Source of the DNA: a virus
Virus record (IMG/VR): IMGVR_UViG_3300047554_001102
Span: 1-46,409 of that record
Length of the DNA: 46,409 nucleotides
Direction: 5' to 3' (one strand)
The translations under genes were made by a program, and so were the position numbers. Shown in pieces: positions 2,262 through 24,715 of the stretch (the first letter of the stretch is position 1; each line of letters opens with the position of its first letter). Below the pieces are notes generated by a model. The model made no database searches. It was not told the DNA's origin and saw only the letters and a program-made list of their open reading frames with translations.

Positions 2262-3866
2262 TTAAATATACCTATTTTGTCTTGATTGTTGAGGAAGATA
2301 ACCAACAAAGTTTGTATCTGAACTAATTATAATTGCATTTTGGGCGTTTGTGACCTGTTCATAAGCCCCAGTTGCGGAATCAACGATGTCATTCACAGTG
2401 GCCTTAAATAATCCGTCAAAACTCTCCACAGCCGATAAAAACTGCCCATTCCAATCCCCCCTAATCAAAAAGACGTGACCCTGTTGCGCCTGGGTAGCCA
2501 AGGGTAACGCCCGTTGTAACTTACTTTTGTCGGGTTTAATGGCCCTAATATCAAATTCCCTATTAACAGATTGCAGTTCCCCCGCAAAGTCACTCTCTAA
2601 AATCTTAGAACTGGCCCCACCCTCCAACTCGTAGCGAATTTTGGTATTTATCCCATCGGCGATCGCAGTCCCCTTAATAGCCTCAAAAACTTCACCAGCT
2701 TTGCGTTGAAATACCAGCAGGTCGAGAATGTAGATATTGGTTCCGATCATTGCCATCAAACAACCAGCAGTAGAACAGGTCTTTTTCCCCGCATCTTCCC
2801 GACTGGTAGCAGCCAAATCCCAAAACCTGATTTTAATAAGCGGCTCACAGGGTAAATCTTTATAGTCAATGACTTTAAACCACTCACCACTAAAGACAAG
2901 ACCCGCAGCAAACCTAATTTTCCAGTTACCAAATAATAATCGTTCTTTTTCAACATTGTGCTGTGCATTTAACTCAGCTAAATAGCCAGGGTTTTTATCC
3001 AGTAACAGCCTATTATCAAAGACACTAGAGCAGATAAACGTAAAACTTTTAATCAAATCTTGGGGCTTAACCAAGCCAAAAGATTGTTCACAAATCTCAT
3101 CCAGTTCATCTCTAAACTCAGTAATTAACGATTCTTTATCATCTGCCCAATAGATAACCTGATTAATCCTTAAAAAATAACGAACAACCCCAGACCGTTC
3201 GGGAATAGCGTAACCGTCTTTAGGGTCCCACCACCACTGAATAAATCTTGCAACCCAACTGTCGGGATCGGGGTTAGTCGTAGCTCTTGTCTGGGGTTTA
3301 ATCCCACACATAGAACGGTTCCGAGATAGCATATAGAAGAATTGATCTTCACTAAAACCCTGGGTTTCATCACCAGCTAACTCATCAAATCCCAATCGTG
3401 TAAATTGCGCCCCCTTATATTGATATTTAGTCTTTTCGTGTTGTAAATGTCGAAATTCTATCTTGCTACCGTAAGCGTTCCATCGCCAAACAGGATTAGG
3501 CTTAGCAACAAATTGACCACCAAGATCGGAATATAATCCATAGCTTTCATCCACCAGTCCCAACGGGGCTAATAACTCAGGGTAAGACTTCCGAAATATC
3601 ACCCCACGATAAAGATTGGTTTTGATATATTGGGGTTTGGCAAAGTCCAAAAGCAAGCCAAAGCTCTTGCCCCCACCAGCCGCGCCCCCATAGATCACCA
3701 CATCAACATCGGACTCATAAAACTGTTTTTGTGGCCCATCCTGGGGTTTAGGTAATAACCAAACATCATTTGATGCAGATGCCAAACTTTTAGCCCTAGT
3801 CGTCGTCGCGCATTGTTGACGAAAACGAGGGCTAAGTCTTGCCGATGGTGAAACGCTACTCGTCAC
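2262..3866 (-). CDS. terL: Terminase large subunit (ATPase-nuclease)
   Basis: A 534-residue packaging motor. Walker A is GGAAGGGKS at residues 60-68, and the Walker B/catalytic pair is GFDEL (D161, E162). The C-terminal RNase H-like nuclease shows IRFWDLAAT (D350), a second acidic strand at YILDLL (D382) and a late DIVDSA acidic motif. These are the three metal-binding positions expected for TerL. The start is a GTG overlapping the end of the upstream gene by 11 bases, suggesting coupled translation. The first 35 residues are basic and Ser/Thr-rich and may be dispensable. Confidence 0.95.
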   Translation of the reverse strand: MTSSVSPSARLSPRFRQQCATTTRAKSLASASNDVWLLPKPQDGPQKQFYESDVDVVIYGGAAGGGKSFGLLLDFAKPQYIKTNLYRGVIFRKSYPELLAPLGLVDESYGLYSDLGGQFVAKPNPVWRWNAYGSKIEFRHLQHEKTKYQYKGAQFTRLGFDELAGDETQGFSEDQFFYMLSRNRSMCGIKPQTRATTNPDPDSWVARFIQWWWDPKDGYAIPERSGVVRYFLRINQVIYWADDKESLITEFRDELDEICEQSFGLVKPQDLIKSFTFICSSVFDNRLLLDKNPGYLAELNAQHNVEKERLLFGNWKIRFAAGLVFSGEWFKVIDYKDLPCEPLIKIRFWDLAATSREDAGKKTCSTAGCLMAMIGTNIYILDLLVFQRKAGEVFEAIKGTAIADGINTKIRYELEGGASSKILESDFAGELQSVNREFDIRAIKPDKSKLQRALPLATQAQQGHVFLIRGDWNGQFLSAVESFDGLFKATVNDIVDSATGAYEQVTNAQNAIIISSDTNFVGYLPQQSRQNRYI

Positions 3867-15394: not shown

Positions 15395-15610
15395 TTATGC
15401 CCAAATCACTCCATGCTCAATTAAATAACTTCGGTGTACGGCTTTTGACTTGCCTTCTGCGTTTTCGACTAAGTAAAGAGGGTTTTCTTTGTCTGCAAGA
15501 ATCACCTCTGTCACTTTGGCTAGTTCTTTTGCCTTGATAAAGCAAGGATCAAAAGCCCATGCAGAAGGAGAAAAGTCTTTTGATAACGTGAATGGTATTG
15601 TAATTTTCAT
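15395..15610 (-). CDS. Small hypothetical protein (71 aa)
   Basis: Begins MKITIPFTLSKDFSPSAWAF; the ATG follows GGATTAATCA. A small beta-rich protein with a KSKAVHRSYLIEHGVIWA tail. No family recognised. It lies immediately beyond the right-end hairpins of the IsrB element, so the insertion appears not to have broken it. Confidence 0.6.
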   Translation of the reverse strand: MKITIPFTLSKDFSPSAWAFDPCFIKAKELAKVTEVILADKENPLYLVENAEGKSKAVHRSYLIEHGVIWA

Positions 15611-15648
15611 TGATTAATCCAATCCTCAAATAATCGTGTTTTAGCTGT

Positions 15649-15700
15649 GGGGTCAAATTCATACCCCACTCCAATACCCAAGGCTTCGTGTTGGGAGTGG
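15649..15700. repeat. Tandem hairpins downstream of isrB (candidate element end)
   Basis: GGGGT (15649-15653) pairs with ACCCC (15663-15667). CCACT (15666-15670) with inner CCCAA (15677-15681) pairs with TTGGG (15691-15695) and AGTGG (15696-15700). Subterminal hairpins are the transposase recognition sites in IS200/IS605-type elements. They lie 14 bases past the isrB stop. Confidence 0.55.
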
Positions 15701-15713
15701 CAGGGAATTTCTG

Positions 15714-16814
15714 CTAGTGAGAAATGGTTAAACCGTTGGATCGACGAATTAATTGAATCTTGCTAACAGCTATCTGCCCTAATCGTTTCCAATTGGCATC
15801 GTTAATAGATAGCAGTTTTTTAGTGTCTCCACCAACATAGCCGATTCCTTTAGGAGAAAAAACTAAATCCCCCTTGCGAAACTCCTTATATCTTGTAGTG
15901 GAGCCACCATACTTACGTCGCTTACCACCCTTGGCAGTAACCATAGAATGAAGTTGACGACGGCTAATGGGAGGACGTTTGACGATGGCAAAAGGAGAAT
16001 TCGTTACTTCAACAGAGCCTTTCCATTCGTGGCCATGCCCGTTAGAGGTATGGAATGGCAAATAATCTAAAAACCGAAAACAGGCGAGAGTAATTCCATC
16101 GTTAGCATGGCTTTCTGGAGTTTGTTCTGCCTTATTTTTGGATTTTTCTAATCCCAAATGCTTCCTCAGATTATATGTTTGCCAACCAAATTTGGTATGA
16201 ACCGTAGCAATCCTAGCAAGTTGTTCGATAGCCCAGTTTTGACCGATCATAACGGGAGAAAAGCTTTTACCTGATTTAGCTCCTTTCCTACCTGAAGTCA
16301 GTTCTATATCAGCTTTGACGTATTCAAAATAAATATCTGTAACTGGGTAGATTTTGGCTAGTTCAGAAACAACTCTCAGTTCGAGTTGACGATTAGCTCT
16401 TATGGAAGGGGCTAACTTATTTTTTCTTCTATTGGAGAATCGTTCTTGACGATGCGCCCTACGGTTAAAAGGAATGTTACGGTTGATTCGCCGTCCCCTT
16501 CTAAGTTTTCGCATCATTCGCCGATTGTCCATTCGTTTCCTTATCTGCTTAAAGGGAAGCTCTAAATGGGCTTTCCATAAGGTAAAAAGAGAAGATTGAA
16601 CACCGATTCCAGAAAATAATTTACCTGGGTCAATGCCAATAGAAATTGGTTGAGTCTTATCGTCGGAAGACTCGGTAGTTAACTGGACATAGAAAATATC
16701 TAAGTCGTTAAATTTGCCGATAGCTTTTCCTTCTTTGATCCACCGCCTAGCCCGACTTGGTTTAGTTGGCATTAACGGCTTTCCGTCTTTTGAAATAACA
16801 GGAACTCTTGGCAT
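15714..16814 (-). CDS. isrB: IsrB-type RNA-guided RuvC nickase (HNH-less IscB relative)
   Basis: 366 residues with the order that defines IscB/IsrB proteins: a PLMP domain (GKPLMP, residues 11-16), RuvC-I SIGIDPG (D62), an Arg-rich bridge helix (about 92-133), RuvC-II IYFEYVKAD (E164), and RuvC-III ESHANDG (H236, D239). Only about 70 residues separate RuvC-II from RuvC-III and contain no HNH motif, so it is IsrB rather than IscB. IsrB proteins nick the non-target strand of DNA using an omega RNA encoded just upstream. All catalytic residues are present. No transposase gene is adjacent, so any element would be mobilised in trans. Confidence 0.9.
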   Translation of the reverse strand: MPRVPVISKDGKPLMPTKPSRARRWIKEGKAIGKFNDLDIFYVQLTTESSDDKTQPISIGIDPGKLFSGIGVQSSLFTLWKAHLELPFKQIRKRMDNRRMMRKLRRGRRINRNIPFNRRAHRQERFSNRRKNKLAPSIRANRQLELRVVSELAKIYPVTDIYFEYVKADIELTSGRKGAKSGKSFSPVMIGQNWAIEQLARIATVHTKFGWQTYNLRKHLGLEKSKNKAEQTPESHANDGITLACFRFLDYLPFHTSNGHGHEWKGSVEVTNSPFAIVKRPPISRRQLHSMVTAKGGKRRKYGGSTTRYKEFRKGDLVFSPKGIGYVGGDTKKLLSINDANWKRLGQIAVSKIQLIRRSNGLTISH

Positions 16815-17039
16815 GGAGATAATCCTTAAGAGTAAAGTTTAAGTCCCTTCGCCCACCTAACAAACTATGTCTTGTCTTACAACGTCTCACCAATGAGACT
16901 TAGAGGGAATCCGAACTAGGGAAGTATTCGGAAGTCTGTAAGATTGTTAGGCTCTACGGGCTAGTCTCTACTTACGTTGCCTAAATTGGCTTAGGCAAAC
17001 CCCGTCCATTTTAGACAGTGTTAGTGATCGTTAGAACAG
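16815..17039 (-). ncRNA. Candidate omega RNA of the IsrB element
   Basis: The 225 bases before isrB are gene-free and highly structured on the same strand. Stems: TTGCCTAA (16977-16984) with TTAGGCAA (16991-16998); TCCGAA (16910-16915) with TTCGGA (16927-16932), enclosed by GACTT/AAGTC; GTCTCA (16884-16889) with TGAGAC (16894-16899); and a long-range junction of CTAACAA (16857-16863) with TTGTTAG (16944-16950) plus TCTTACA (16875-16881) with TGTAAGA (16937-16943). In this family the RNA lies 5' of the gene, with its guide at the 5' end; that end would be near 17020-17060. Confidence 0.7.
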
Positions 17040-17294
17040 TCAGGGATAGGGACTCCAAAACCATTCAGATTTAGGGTGAGTTTTCATCCATTCATCTGTT
17101 TTGGTCATCTCACAAATCATACGGTCTGTCTCGTATGGCTGCATTACACAGCTAGTCTGGATGACGTAAAGAACACTGCCTGGGGGGTGAGGATATTTGG
17201 GTTTGGGGCCAAGCCAACCCCAAAGGCAAGCACCGCAAAATGCCAAAAATAAAACAGTATTAACTAAATCTTGATCGGGTTTTTTAGTCGGCAT
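17040..17294 (-). CDS. Small membrane protein (84 aa)
   Basis: The ATG at 17294 (MPTKKPDQDL) is chosen because it overlaps the preceding stop by 11 bases; an upstream in-frame start would bury it in that gene. One membrane segment is predicted at about 11-25 (VNTVLFLAFCGACLWGWL), then a Pro-rich stretch and a soluble tail with two Cys. Its stop lies at the presumed 5' border of the IsrB element. No family recognised. Confidence 0.6.
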   Translation of the reverse strand: MPTKKPDQDLVNTVLFLAFCGACLWGWLGPKPKYPHPPGSVLYVIQTSCVMQPYETDRMICEMTKTDEWMKTHPKSEWFWSPYP

Positions 17295-22558: not shown

Positions 22559-22855
22559 GTGTCTAATTTGGCTATTGATAGCGAGGATTGTAATGTTTTT
22601 GATCATCTTGATTCAGTAATTGAAGAAGGCTATGCTCAACGACATAAAAAACTCGCCAAACTAATGCGAGAAACAAGACAAGCCACTGGACTAAAGCAAT
22701 CGGAACTAGCAGAACGATTAGACGTAACCCAGTCTTGGGTGTCAAAAATGGAATCAGGCTCAAACCATACTCTTGACAACCTTGTTGATTACTTTGAAGC
22801 GATGGGTTACAAAGTCAAGTTAACCGTTTATAAGCCAGAAGAGATTGAGCTTTAG
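22559..22855 (+). CDS. XRE-family helix-turn-helix regulator
   Basis: 98 residues, GTG start behind AAGAGGATTTAATC. The helix-turn-helix TGLKQSELAERLDVTQSWVSKMESG lies at about 43-67 and continues into NLVDYFEAMGYKVKLTVY, a form common in antitoxins and small phage regulators. No toxin gene is adjacent; its neighbour is the convergent integrase (stops one base apart). A regulator of integration or of the adjacent genes is plausible. Confidence 0.8.
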   Translation: MSNLAIDSEDCNVFDHLDSVIEEGYAQRHKKLAKLMRETRQATGLKQSELAERLDVTQSWVSKMESGSNHTLDNLVDYFEAMGYKVKLTVYKPEEIEL

Positions 22856-23899
22856 TCAACTTAATTTAGTCATAATTCTATCAAAAGCCTTCTGGTGAGT
22901 ATCATCATCAAGCCATAAATTATACGTTGCGGTATGGACAGTGTGACTATGCCGCATTTGTTTTGCGGCTAATCTACTATCTAGCCCCAATTCAATCGTC
23001 CTTCTGGCCCAACAATGTCTAAGCGCATAGGGCGGAAAGGGGATGTGGTTGCGTTGAAATATTTTGGTGATGCGATCGCCATAGTCCCGATAATATTTTG
23101 CTTTTTGGCAATTAGGTAAACAACAATCAGTCAAATTAAATTTATCAAACCAGTCGGGATAGAAGGGCCAAACTTTCCCCGCCCCCCGTTTGCCCTCGGT
23201 GACATAACAAATTCGATTCTCTACCAGGTAATCCAGATCAACAAAAAATAATTCATGGTTCCGCAAGCCGAATGTTGCCAGCATCCCGTAAGCCCATTTG
23301 CTTGACGGGTATTTAATTTTGTCGTACCACTCCACAATCGCATCATCTGATGGCAATAATCTGGGATTGACTTTACTGGCTGAATAATTCCCCCGCAATA
23401 GCCCAACATCTAAATCTAACCGCAAAAACTTAGCCAACCCACCCAAAATCACACAAGCTTTTTTGCGGGTAGAGGTATTTGGCTTAGTTTTTGTCTCGAT
23501 AAACTCCTGTAACACTTTACTGGTAACGATCTTGTCACTGTCGAACTGGCTTAAAACGGATAAATAATCATGCTCCCATGTGCCTAGGCTTTGAATCGTC
23601 GGTAGATGCTCAATAAAATACTGCTCTTTAAATCGGGCGATCGCATCCTTAAAGGTCAGCTTACAAATACCAGCAGGGGAAGTTTTATCTGGCCAGGTAA
23701 ATGTCCCATCTTCCAATTGAATCGCTAAAACCAACGCCCTATCTTTTGCTTTCTCCCATCCTATCGGGTCACTCGACAACCCTGTTGCTATCCTTTGCTG
23801 GTGTTTATTCTCTTTTCCACTCCCAGGCTTAGGGGGTAATGTAGCGACTAAGTATAACCACCCATTTCTGTCCACTATCGTCACGTTTTTTACTTTCAT
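22856..23899 (-). CDS. int: Tyrosine-family integrase
   Basis: 347 residues. The catalytic domain shows Arg I (GLRNHE, R213), a Lys-containing strand (EGKRGAGKVW), box II LRHCWARR (R294), H317 in MRHSH and the nucleophile in TATYNLW (Y326). The usual first His of box II is Tyr (PPYALRH). The N-terminal 80 residues resemble an arm-binding domain, then a core-binding region. It starts beside attP, as expected of a temperate phage integrase that uses a tRNA gene. Confidence 0.9.
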   Translation of the reverse strand: MKVKNVTIVDRNGWLYLVATLPPKPGSGKENKHQQRIATGLSSDPIGWEKAKDRALVLAIQLEDGTFTWPDKTSPAGICKLTFKDAIARFKEQYFIEHLPTIQSLGTWEHDYLSVLSQFDSDKIVTSKVLQEFIETKTKPNTSTRKKACVILGGLAKFLRLDLDVGLLRGNYSASKVNPRLLPSDDAIVEWYDKIKYPSSKWAYGMLATFGLRNHELFFVDLDYLVENRICYVTEGKRGAGKVWPFYPDWFDKFNLTDCCLPNCQKAKYYRDYGDRITKIFQRNHIPFPPYALRHCWARRTIELGLDSRLAAKQMRHSHTVHTATYNLWLDDDTHQKAFDRIMTKLS

Positions 23900-24153: not shown

Positions 24154-24621
24154 TTAAGTTTGGCCTGGATTTAGCTTTTTAAACATTTCTGCGATAGTTT
24201 TTGCCCATTCCACTTGTTCCCTCATCTTATCAACACTTATCACCATTAGTTTAATAGCCAATGGTGCTATATCCTCTGGTTCGAGGTGCTTTATAACGAT
24301 ACTCTCAATCATGCTTTTGTCTAGGGGTTGTCTCACGGCTTGTTGGTAAGCCTTACTGGCTTCTTTAATGTCTTTAATCTCATCATTTTCAAAATAATAA
24401 TTCAATTCATCAAGGGTGACATTCCACATCTTAGCAATAGTTTTCATGTTGTCCCACTCAGGCGTAGAGGTCTTTTTGGGGCTTGTCATCGTTTGAATAA
24501 AGCCGTGAGAAACCGTATTACCACCTAACTCAGAAAACCACTTTGCCAGTTGTTCTTGGGTCATACCAAGCTCATCTTGCTTATCTACAAATAATTTAAT
24601 TAATTTTTGTCGGTTTAACAT
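24154..24621 (-). CDS. CI-like repressor (XRE helix-turn-helix)
   Basis: About 155 residues from the ATG at 24621 (MLNRQKLIKLFVD). The helix-turn-helix contains MTQEQLAKWFSELGG and GNTVSHGFIQTMTS. The C-terminal half is helical with no LexA-type peptidase motif, so it is unlikely to be self-cleaving. It has a divergent promoter pair with the rightward genes at 24651-24746 and lies next to int and attP. This is the position and size of a lysogeny repressor. The upstream in-frame start would extend past its own promoter. Confidence 0.7.
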   Translation of the reverse strand: MLNRQKLIKLFVDKQDELGMTQEQLAKWFSELGGNTVSHGFIQTMTSPKKTSTPEWDNMKTIAKMWNVTLDELNYYFENDEIKDIKEASKAYQQAVRQPLDKSMIESIVIKHLEPEDIAPLAIKLMVISVDKMREQVEWAKTIAEMFKKLNPGQT

Positions 24622-24650
24622 TTTGATTGTGATTAAAAAGGTGTAATCAA

Positions 24651-24680
24651 TTAATAGCATCGAGTAACATAAATTGGCAA
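24651..24680 (-). promoter_or_regulatory. Promoter of the repressor gene
   Basis: On the minus strand, TTGCCA (24680-24675), an 18-base spacer and TATTAA (24656-24651). The predicted start near 24644 supports the ATG at 24621. A TTGATT/AATCAA dyad (24623-24650) in the leader could be an operator. Confidence 0.55.
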
Positions 24681-24715
24681 GGCTATAAAGCAAAATAGTC
24701 ACTAAAATTGCAAGC

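What the first reader, a model, noticed from the sequence alone, without database searches (positions are those of the whole stretch)
15640..17060. An IsrB RNA-guided nickase element carried by a cyanophage
PLMP, all RuvC catalytic residues and a bridge helix are present and an HNH domain is absent, the signature of IsrB. It sits in a phage accessory region with a structured upstream RNA and downstream hairpins, and appears intact. Phage-borne IsrB could be a passenger of an IS200/IS605-like element or could be used by the phage against competitors. Family identity is established from motifs; the biological role is inference.
Basis: partly seen in the sequence, partly recalled or inferred. Interest (0 to 1): 0.85.

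Follow-up and report, generated by a model that had tools for sequence, protein, structure and literature searches.

The report
Phage-borne IsrB nickase, transposon end lost
A phage that probably infects cyanobacteria carries a complete RNA-guided DNA-nicking gene (IsrB) and its guide RNA, picked up from a cyanobacterial jumping element and now stuck in place because one end of that element has been lost; the enzyme and its presence in Microcystis phages are already known, so this is a modest new example.

Summary
ORF 15714-16814 (-), 366 aa, is IsrB: Pfam RRXRR 1.9e-53, full-length match to DtIsrB (PDB 8dmb, 1.1e-42), top structure match 8dmb (1e-26). PLMP, RuvC D62/E164/H236/D239 and the bridge helix are present; there is no HNH. 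An omega-RNA (HEARO) lies upstream at 16815-17028; 34 of its 48 pairs show compensatory changes across 20 sequences.

A sister phage (L041) has both neighbouring genes and no isrB. Phage homology resumes exactly at the isrB stop codon, so the 'downstream hairpins' (15640-15713) are phage sequence. Close relatives carry a ~59-bp right end (hairpin ... ATGA) after the stop; this copy lacks it. There is no TnpA. It is an immobilised copy, acquired independently from the Microcystaceae IsrB lineage, with complete ORF and omega-RNA.

Phage-borne IsrB is known: Microcystis phages LMM01 and MaMV carry it, a host IsrB jumped into phage Mic1 in the laboratory, and K2IsrB came from a virome. No guide target was found. 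Most likely a stranded passenger; a homing or competition role is possible but unsupported. New member of a known kind. A CRISPR-looking repeat array beside isrB in Microcystis myophages is noted separately.

The parts
15714..16814 (-). isrB ORF, 366 aa; PLMP motif, RuvC-I D62, bridge-helix Arg cluster, RuvC-II E164, RuvC-III H236/D239, TAM residues R344/Q347 (equivalent to DtIsrB R323/Q326); no HNH
   Evidence: TAM residues from PMC9581776
16815..17028 (-). omega-RNA (HEARO-like) scaffold, 5' of isrB on the same strand; starts ATCACTAAC (GTCACTAACC in kin)
   Evidence: 34 of 48 pairs with compensatory change; 97.4% of cells paired against 35-47% for slid controls
17029..17048 (-). inferred 20-nt guide TATCCCTGACTGTTCTAACG, taken from the phage flank (it overlaps the stop codon of the upstream phage gene)
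   Evidence: position inferred from the DtIsrB omega-RNA (20-nt guide at the 5' end, PMC9581776) and the omega-RNA 5' end
15714..15715 (-). 3' junction: element homology ends at CACTA of the isrB stop region and phage homology starts at the next base (the stop TAG takes its G from phage DNA); the ~59-bp right end seen in kin is missing
15607..15713 (-).
   Evidence: L041 has the longer open frame (59 codons, start not identified)
17040..17294 (-). upstream phage gene (84 aa, MPTKKPDQ...), 75% identical to its L041 counterpart; ends 11 bases before the omega-RNA
15395..15610 (-). downstream phage gene (71 aa, MKITIPFT...), 87% identical to its L041 counterpart

Best explanation
This is an IsrB OMEGA nickase gene with its own omega-RNA. 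It came from a cyanobacterial (Microcystaceae-lineage) IS200/IS605-type IsrB element that entered this phage independently of the IsrB lineage in LMM01-type myophages. The copy later lost its right end, so it can no longer be moved by a TnpA supplied in trans, and it is now inherited as an ordinary phage gene. Shown: gene and RNA anatomy, absence of the right end, sister phage without isrB, multiple phage entries. [quoted passage not shown] the natural target would have been the isrB-less allele of this site; its present benefit to the phage is small or nil (stranded passenger under incomplete decay).
For: Pfam RRXRR 1.9e-53; DtIsrB 8dmb full length 1.1e-42; AlphaFold model pLDDT 79, best PDB match 8dmb 1e-26 ahead of IscBs; catalytic residues conserved in 22 homologues and TAM residues present; HEARO at 16837-17028 with covariation far above controls; sister phage L041 lacks isrB, with phage homology ending at 17053 and resuming at 15714; the right end (hairpin + TTTTTCG|ATGA) follows isrB in close kin, including the nearest host copy L098, and is absent here; no TnpA in the window; tree: the window groups with a host copy, L002 falls among Microcystis host copies, and LMM01-type phage copies form another clade; lineage pN/pS 0.19-0.20, constrained but about twice the host lineages' 0.07-0.11. 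A laboratory jump of a host IsrB (207 bp up, 59 bp down, at ATGA) into phage Mic1 is published (PMC11237433).
Against: L041 is the only relative with the site; 95 of its bases are replaced, so a clean insertion cannot be shown, and loss of isrB from L041 is not excluded. pN/pS of about 0.2 shows the ORF has not drifted neutrally for long, as a pure passenger would. The window IsrB has a long end branch (0.14), so its true donor is not sampled. No biochemical evidence; the phage host is not proven.
Confidence: 0.72

Rival explanations
1. Domesticated phage tool: with the transposon end gone, the phage keeps IsrB because the RNP nicks the isrB-less allele of this locus (or other sequences) in co-infecting phages, promoting copying of the isrB allele (homing-like gene drive) or exclusion of rivals.
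For: Intact ORF, RNA and catalytic residues despite loss of mobility; constrained pN/pS of about 0.2; isrB lies on the same strand as, and between, phage genes; some other phage IsrBs also lack a recognisable right end (L140, L144, L146/L147, by eye); TnpB has been shown to act as a gene drive for IS in plasmids (PMC11870625).
Against: No guide target found: one 17-nt guide match lies in an unrelated phage without the TAM, two seed+TAM matches lie in phages with no evident kinship, and there was one 3-mismatch match in 50 host genomes, all consistent with chance; L041 does not carry the guide sequence.
Confidence: 0.17
2. Still-mobile passenger: a complete IsrB element that can be moved in trans by a host TnpA.
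For: Left end and omega-RNA present; the same kind of element moved from host to phage Mic1 in the laboratory (PMC11237433); TnpA genes occur in Microcystis genomes.
Against: Right end absent: no match to its motif in the window with up to 3 mismatches, and the sequence after the stop codon is phage sequence shared with L041. IS200/IS605-type transposition needs both ends (established knowledge).
Confidence: 0.05
3. Dead relic: a pseudogene-like remnant with no RNP activity, sampled before inactivating mutations appear.
For: Right end lost; pN/pS on this lineage is about twice that of host lineages; longest branch among close kin.
Against: 366-aa ORF without stops, catalytic and other invariant columns kept, omega-RNA helices largely kept in this sequence.
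Confidence: 0.06

Closest known systems
DtIsrB (Desulfovirgula thermocuniculi), PDB 8dmb, PMC9581776
   Same: Same domain order (PLMP, RuvC, bridge helix, no HNH, TAM-interacting domain), full-length alignment, conserved TAM residues, omega-RNA upstream
   Different: Low sequence identity (31% in the structural alignment); thermophile source; not phage-borne in that study
CwIsrB (Crocosphaera watsonii) and K2IsrB (viral metagenome contig), PMC9581776
   Same: Crocosphaera watsonii WH 8501 IsrBs found here are 64-66% identical to this one; CwIsrB and K2IsrB were active with an NTG TAM, and K2IsrB shows that a viral IsrB was already characterised
   Different: Whether CwIsrB is one of those loci was not checked; this copy's activity is untested and it lacks the transposon right end
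IsrB element of Microcystis aeruginosa FACHB 1339 (orf2067) that inserted into phage Mic1 gp49, PMC11237433
   Same: An IsrB element of a Microcystis host entering a cyanophage; 207 bp upstream and 59 bp downstream match the left and right extents seen in the kin compared here
   Different: The Mic1 insertion has its downstream end and broke a phage gene; the window copy has lost its right end and sits between phage genes. Its sequence was not compared here
RRXRR/IsrB genes of Microcystis phages LMM01, MaMV-DC, DH01, CH01, CH02 (Fukuivirus; phrog_32617)
   Same: 83-84% identical IsrB in phages, same omega-RNA
   Different: Different phage group, different site, separate acquisition in the tree; those copies keep the right end and carry an upstream repeat array

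Membership tests
IsrB (OMEGA nickase) | N-terminal PLMP domain | tested here: met
   PLMP motif in the RRXRR match, residues 4-176; alignment to 8dmb from residue 2
IsrB (OMEGA nickase) | RuvC catalytic residues D/E/H/D | tested here: met
   D62, E164, H236, D239 invariant in 22 homologues and aligned with DtIsrB
IsrB (OMEGA nickase) | Arg-rich bridge helix | tested here: met
   Helix 91-109 in the model; invariant R105-R109 cluster
IsrB (OMEGA nickase) | No HNH domain, about 350 aa | tested here: met
   366 aa; no HNH family in Pfam; NCBIfam IscB model matches only 6-172, below its cut-off (114.4 against 175)
IsrB (OMEGA nickase) | Omega-RNA encoded directly upstream | tested here: met
   HEARO 16837-17028, E=0.003, below gathering score; covariation
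IsrB (OMEGA nickase) | Fold closest to IsrB | tested here: met
   Foldseek best hit 8dmb_P 1e-26, IscBs next
IsrB (OMEGA nickase) | RNA-guided nicking of the non-target strand | not testable with these tools
   Needs biochemistry
IscB | HNH domain inserted in RuvC | tested here: not met
TnpB | TnpB/Cas12-type RuvC with omega-RNA at the 3' end | tested here: not met
   No TnpB family in Pfam or NCBIfam up to E=1; best folds are IsrB/IscB; RNA is 5' of the ORF
Intact IS200/IS605-type IsrB element | Left end | tested here: met
   ATCACTAAC at 17028, aligned with GTCACTAACC of kin
Intact IS200/IS605-type IsrB element | Right-end hairpin followed by an NTGA target motif | tested here: not met
Intact IS200/IS605-type IsrB element | TnpA encoded in the same element | tested here: not met
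   No PF01797 match in the window record; IsrB elements commonly lack it, so this is weak evidence

The most novel reading that the evidence does not exclude
An IsrB-omega-RNA module domesticated by a phage: freed of its transposon end, with a guide fixed from the phage's own flank, it acts as an RNA-guided homing or exclusion nickase between related phages.
Probability: 0.15. Interest if true: 0.7.

Novelty: new member of a known kind. Interest (0 to 1): 0.36.

Why it matters
It adds a well-bounded example of an OMEGA system carried by a phage, with a sister phage lacking it and with the transposon end demonstrably missing. If such end-less phage IsrBs prove to be kept by selection, they would be candidates for phage domestication of RNA-guided nickases. 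As it stands it mainly documents repeated traffic of IsrB elements between bloom cyanobacteria and their phages.

Tried and rejected
(1) Guide targets: 14-nt seed plus NTGA in IMG/VR gave two phages with no evident kinship; a 17-nt guide gave one unrelated phage with TCGG instead of the TAM; 20 nt plus NTG with up to 3 mismatches in 50 Microcystaceae genomes gave one hit, against two reversed-pattern control hits. All read as chance. (2) Matching TnpA: 20 TnpA loci of Microcystis genomes and LMM01 did not carry the IsrB right-end hairpin; TnpB elements in Microcystis do share it, so the mobilising TnpA was not identified. (3) Near DNA match of window 1-25000 to known phages: none. (4) Terminase to name the host: only distant matches. 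(5) An automatic hairpin test for right ends was unreliable: it overshot stop codons, missed obvious right ends and flagged phage sequence, so right ends were judged by eye and, for the window, by the sister phage. (6) In the tree, row L100 was a wrongly extracted frame with an enormous branch; conclusions use only branches not involving it.

Full report
Observation. The window is a 46,409-base virus record of IMG/VR. The ORF at 15714-16814 on the minus strand encodes 366 aa. Pfam gives RRXRR (PF14239) at 1.9e-53 over residues 4-176 and no HNH. The NCBIfam IscB model matches only residues 6-172 and stays under its cut-off. phmmer aligns residues 2-363 with DtIsrB (8dmb) at 1.1e-42, while IscBs match only the N-terminal part. 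An AlphaFold model (pLDDT 79) has 8dmb as best PDB match, 1e-26, ahead of IscBs. RuvC D62, E164, H236 and D239 and the bridge-helix arginines are invariant among 22 homologues. DtIsrB reads its TAM with R323 and Q326 (PMC9581776); the aligned residues here are R344 and Q347, so an NTG(A) TAM is expected (inference).

RNA. No Rfam family reaches its gathering score in the window, but HEARO (RF02033) matches 16837-17028 (-) end to end with 27.8 bits, E=0.003. Bases 16815-17028 aligned with 19 relatives fold into a consensus of 48 pairs, 34 with compensatory change; 97.4% of cells pair, against 35-47% when partners are slid, and no shuffle of 500 reaches the covariation score. This is the omega-RNA. 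By the DtIsrB arrangement the guide is the 20 nt just 5', 17029-17048: TATCCCTGACTGTTCTAACG.

Boundaries. Relatives of both flanking genes occur in one other viral contig, L041 (IMGVR_UViG_3300048593_000672), whose terminase is 73% identical. It has no isrB at this site. Homology with the window runs to 17053 on one side and starts again at 15714 on the other, with 95 bases of L041 replaced by window 15715-17052. Because the flanks are not contiguous in L041, a clean insertion with an undisturbed empty site cannot be shown.

Missing right end. In close kin, from Microcystis, from LMM01-type phages and from the nearest host copy (L098), the isrB stop is followed by about 60 bases ending in a hairpin and TTTTTCG|ATGA or a near variant. 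The laboratory jump of a Microcystis IsrB into phage Mic1 carried 207 bp upstream and 59 bp downstream and landed at ATGA (PMC11237433), which agrees with these ends. The window has no such sequence, and the junction with phage DNA falls at the stop codon. No TnpA (PF01797) is found in the record. The copy is therefore immobile by established knowledge of IS200/IS605 transposition. In Microcystis the same end hairpin also borders TnpB elements, which suggests a shared TnpA; none was identified.

Origin and selection. IsrBs of this group are common in cyanobacteria: 24 of 50 genomes in the Microcystis family have protein matches, though some of these are distant, IscB-like matches, and 94 of 293 in the order have DNA matches. 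In the tree the window groups with a host copy (L098; support 85/87), phage copy L002 falls among Microcystis host copies, and LMM01-type phage copies form one clade; the label needs three changes, of which strongly supported branches force two. So phages most likely acquired IsrB about three times or more. Changes private to the window lineage give pN/pS 0.19-0.20, against 0.07-0.11 for two host lineages: constrained, but relaxed. The branch includes time before the phage acquired the gene.

Function. The RNP, if made, should nick DNA matching the guide. Searches for targets gave only chance-like hits. The most likely state is a stranded passenger that still encodes a working RNP. A homing or exclusion role between phages is possible, by analogy with the TnpB gene drive in plasmids (PMC11870625), but nothing here supports it directly.

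Known or new. IsrB in phages has been recorded as a gene (phrog_32617; LMM01 and MaMV phages), in a functional study (K2IsrB, from a viral metagenome; PMC9581776) and as a laboratory transposition (PMC11237433). The present copy is a new member, distinguished by the missing right end. Several other phage IsrBs (L140, L144, L146/L147) also show no obvious right end by eye; if confirmed, that would be a pattern worth testing.

Host. The phage has a terminase, a tape measure protein and an integrase, so it is probably temperate. Its cyanobacterial host is inferred from the IsrB lineage only.

Noticed in passing
L035 (LMM01) about 3670-3800; L036, L038, L039; L003, L005, L006, L007, L008 upstream of isrB: In LMM01-type Microcystis phages and uncultured kin the isrB omega-RNA is preceded by an array of about 4-8 irregular units, each starting with the element's own 5' end GTCACTAACC(CCGCCCTA...), often 25-40 nt apart with short variable spacers; unit number differs between close phages, and clusters were not seen in the host genomes tested or in the window copy. 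It looks CRISPR-like but may be tandem duplication; possibly a multi-guide or guide-renewal arrangement.
   Followed up: partly
L005 3804-4530; L036-L039 about 1390-1580: Short derivatives of the IsrB element in phages: an omega-RNA plus right end without a full isrB in L005, and a right-end fragment in MaMV phages.
   Followed up: no
L005 5813-7450 (also L004, L009): One IsrB element inserted inside the isrB of another, after the codons for ...YVQLT.
   Followed up: no
L003, L005, L035, L036 just after isrB: In phages the element's ATGA target motif appears to coincide with the start codon of the next phage gene (ATGA...), so the element abuts that start (L035 gp170 annotation).
   Followed up: no
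L140, L144, L146, L147: Other phage-borne IsrBs (43-60% identical) with no recognisable right end after the stop codon; L140 and L144 still match HEARO.
   Followed up: partly
window 22856-23899 (-), 24154-24702 (-), 22559-22855 (+): Integrase (PHROG integrase) near two short ORFs whose sequences look like helix-turn-helix regulators (not searched): probable lysogeny module.
   Followed up: no
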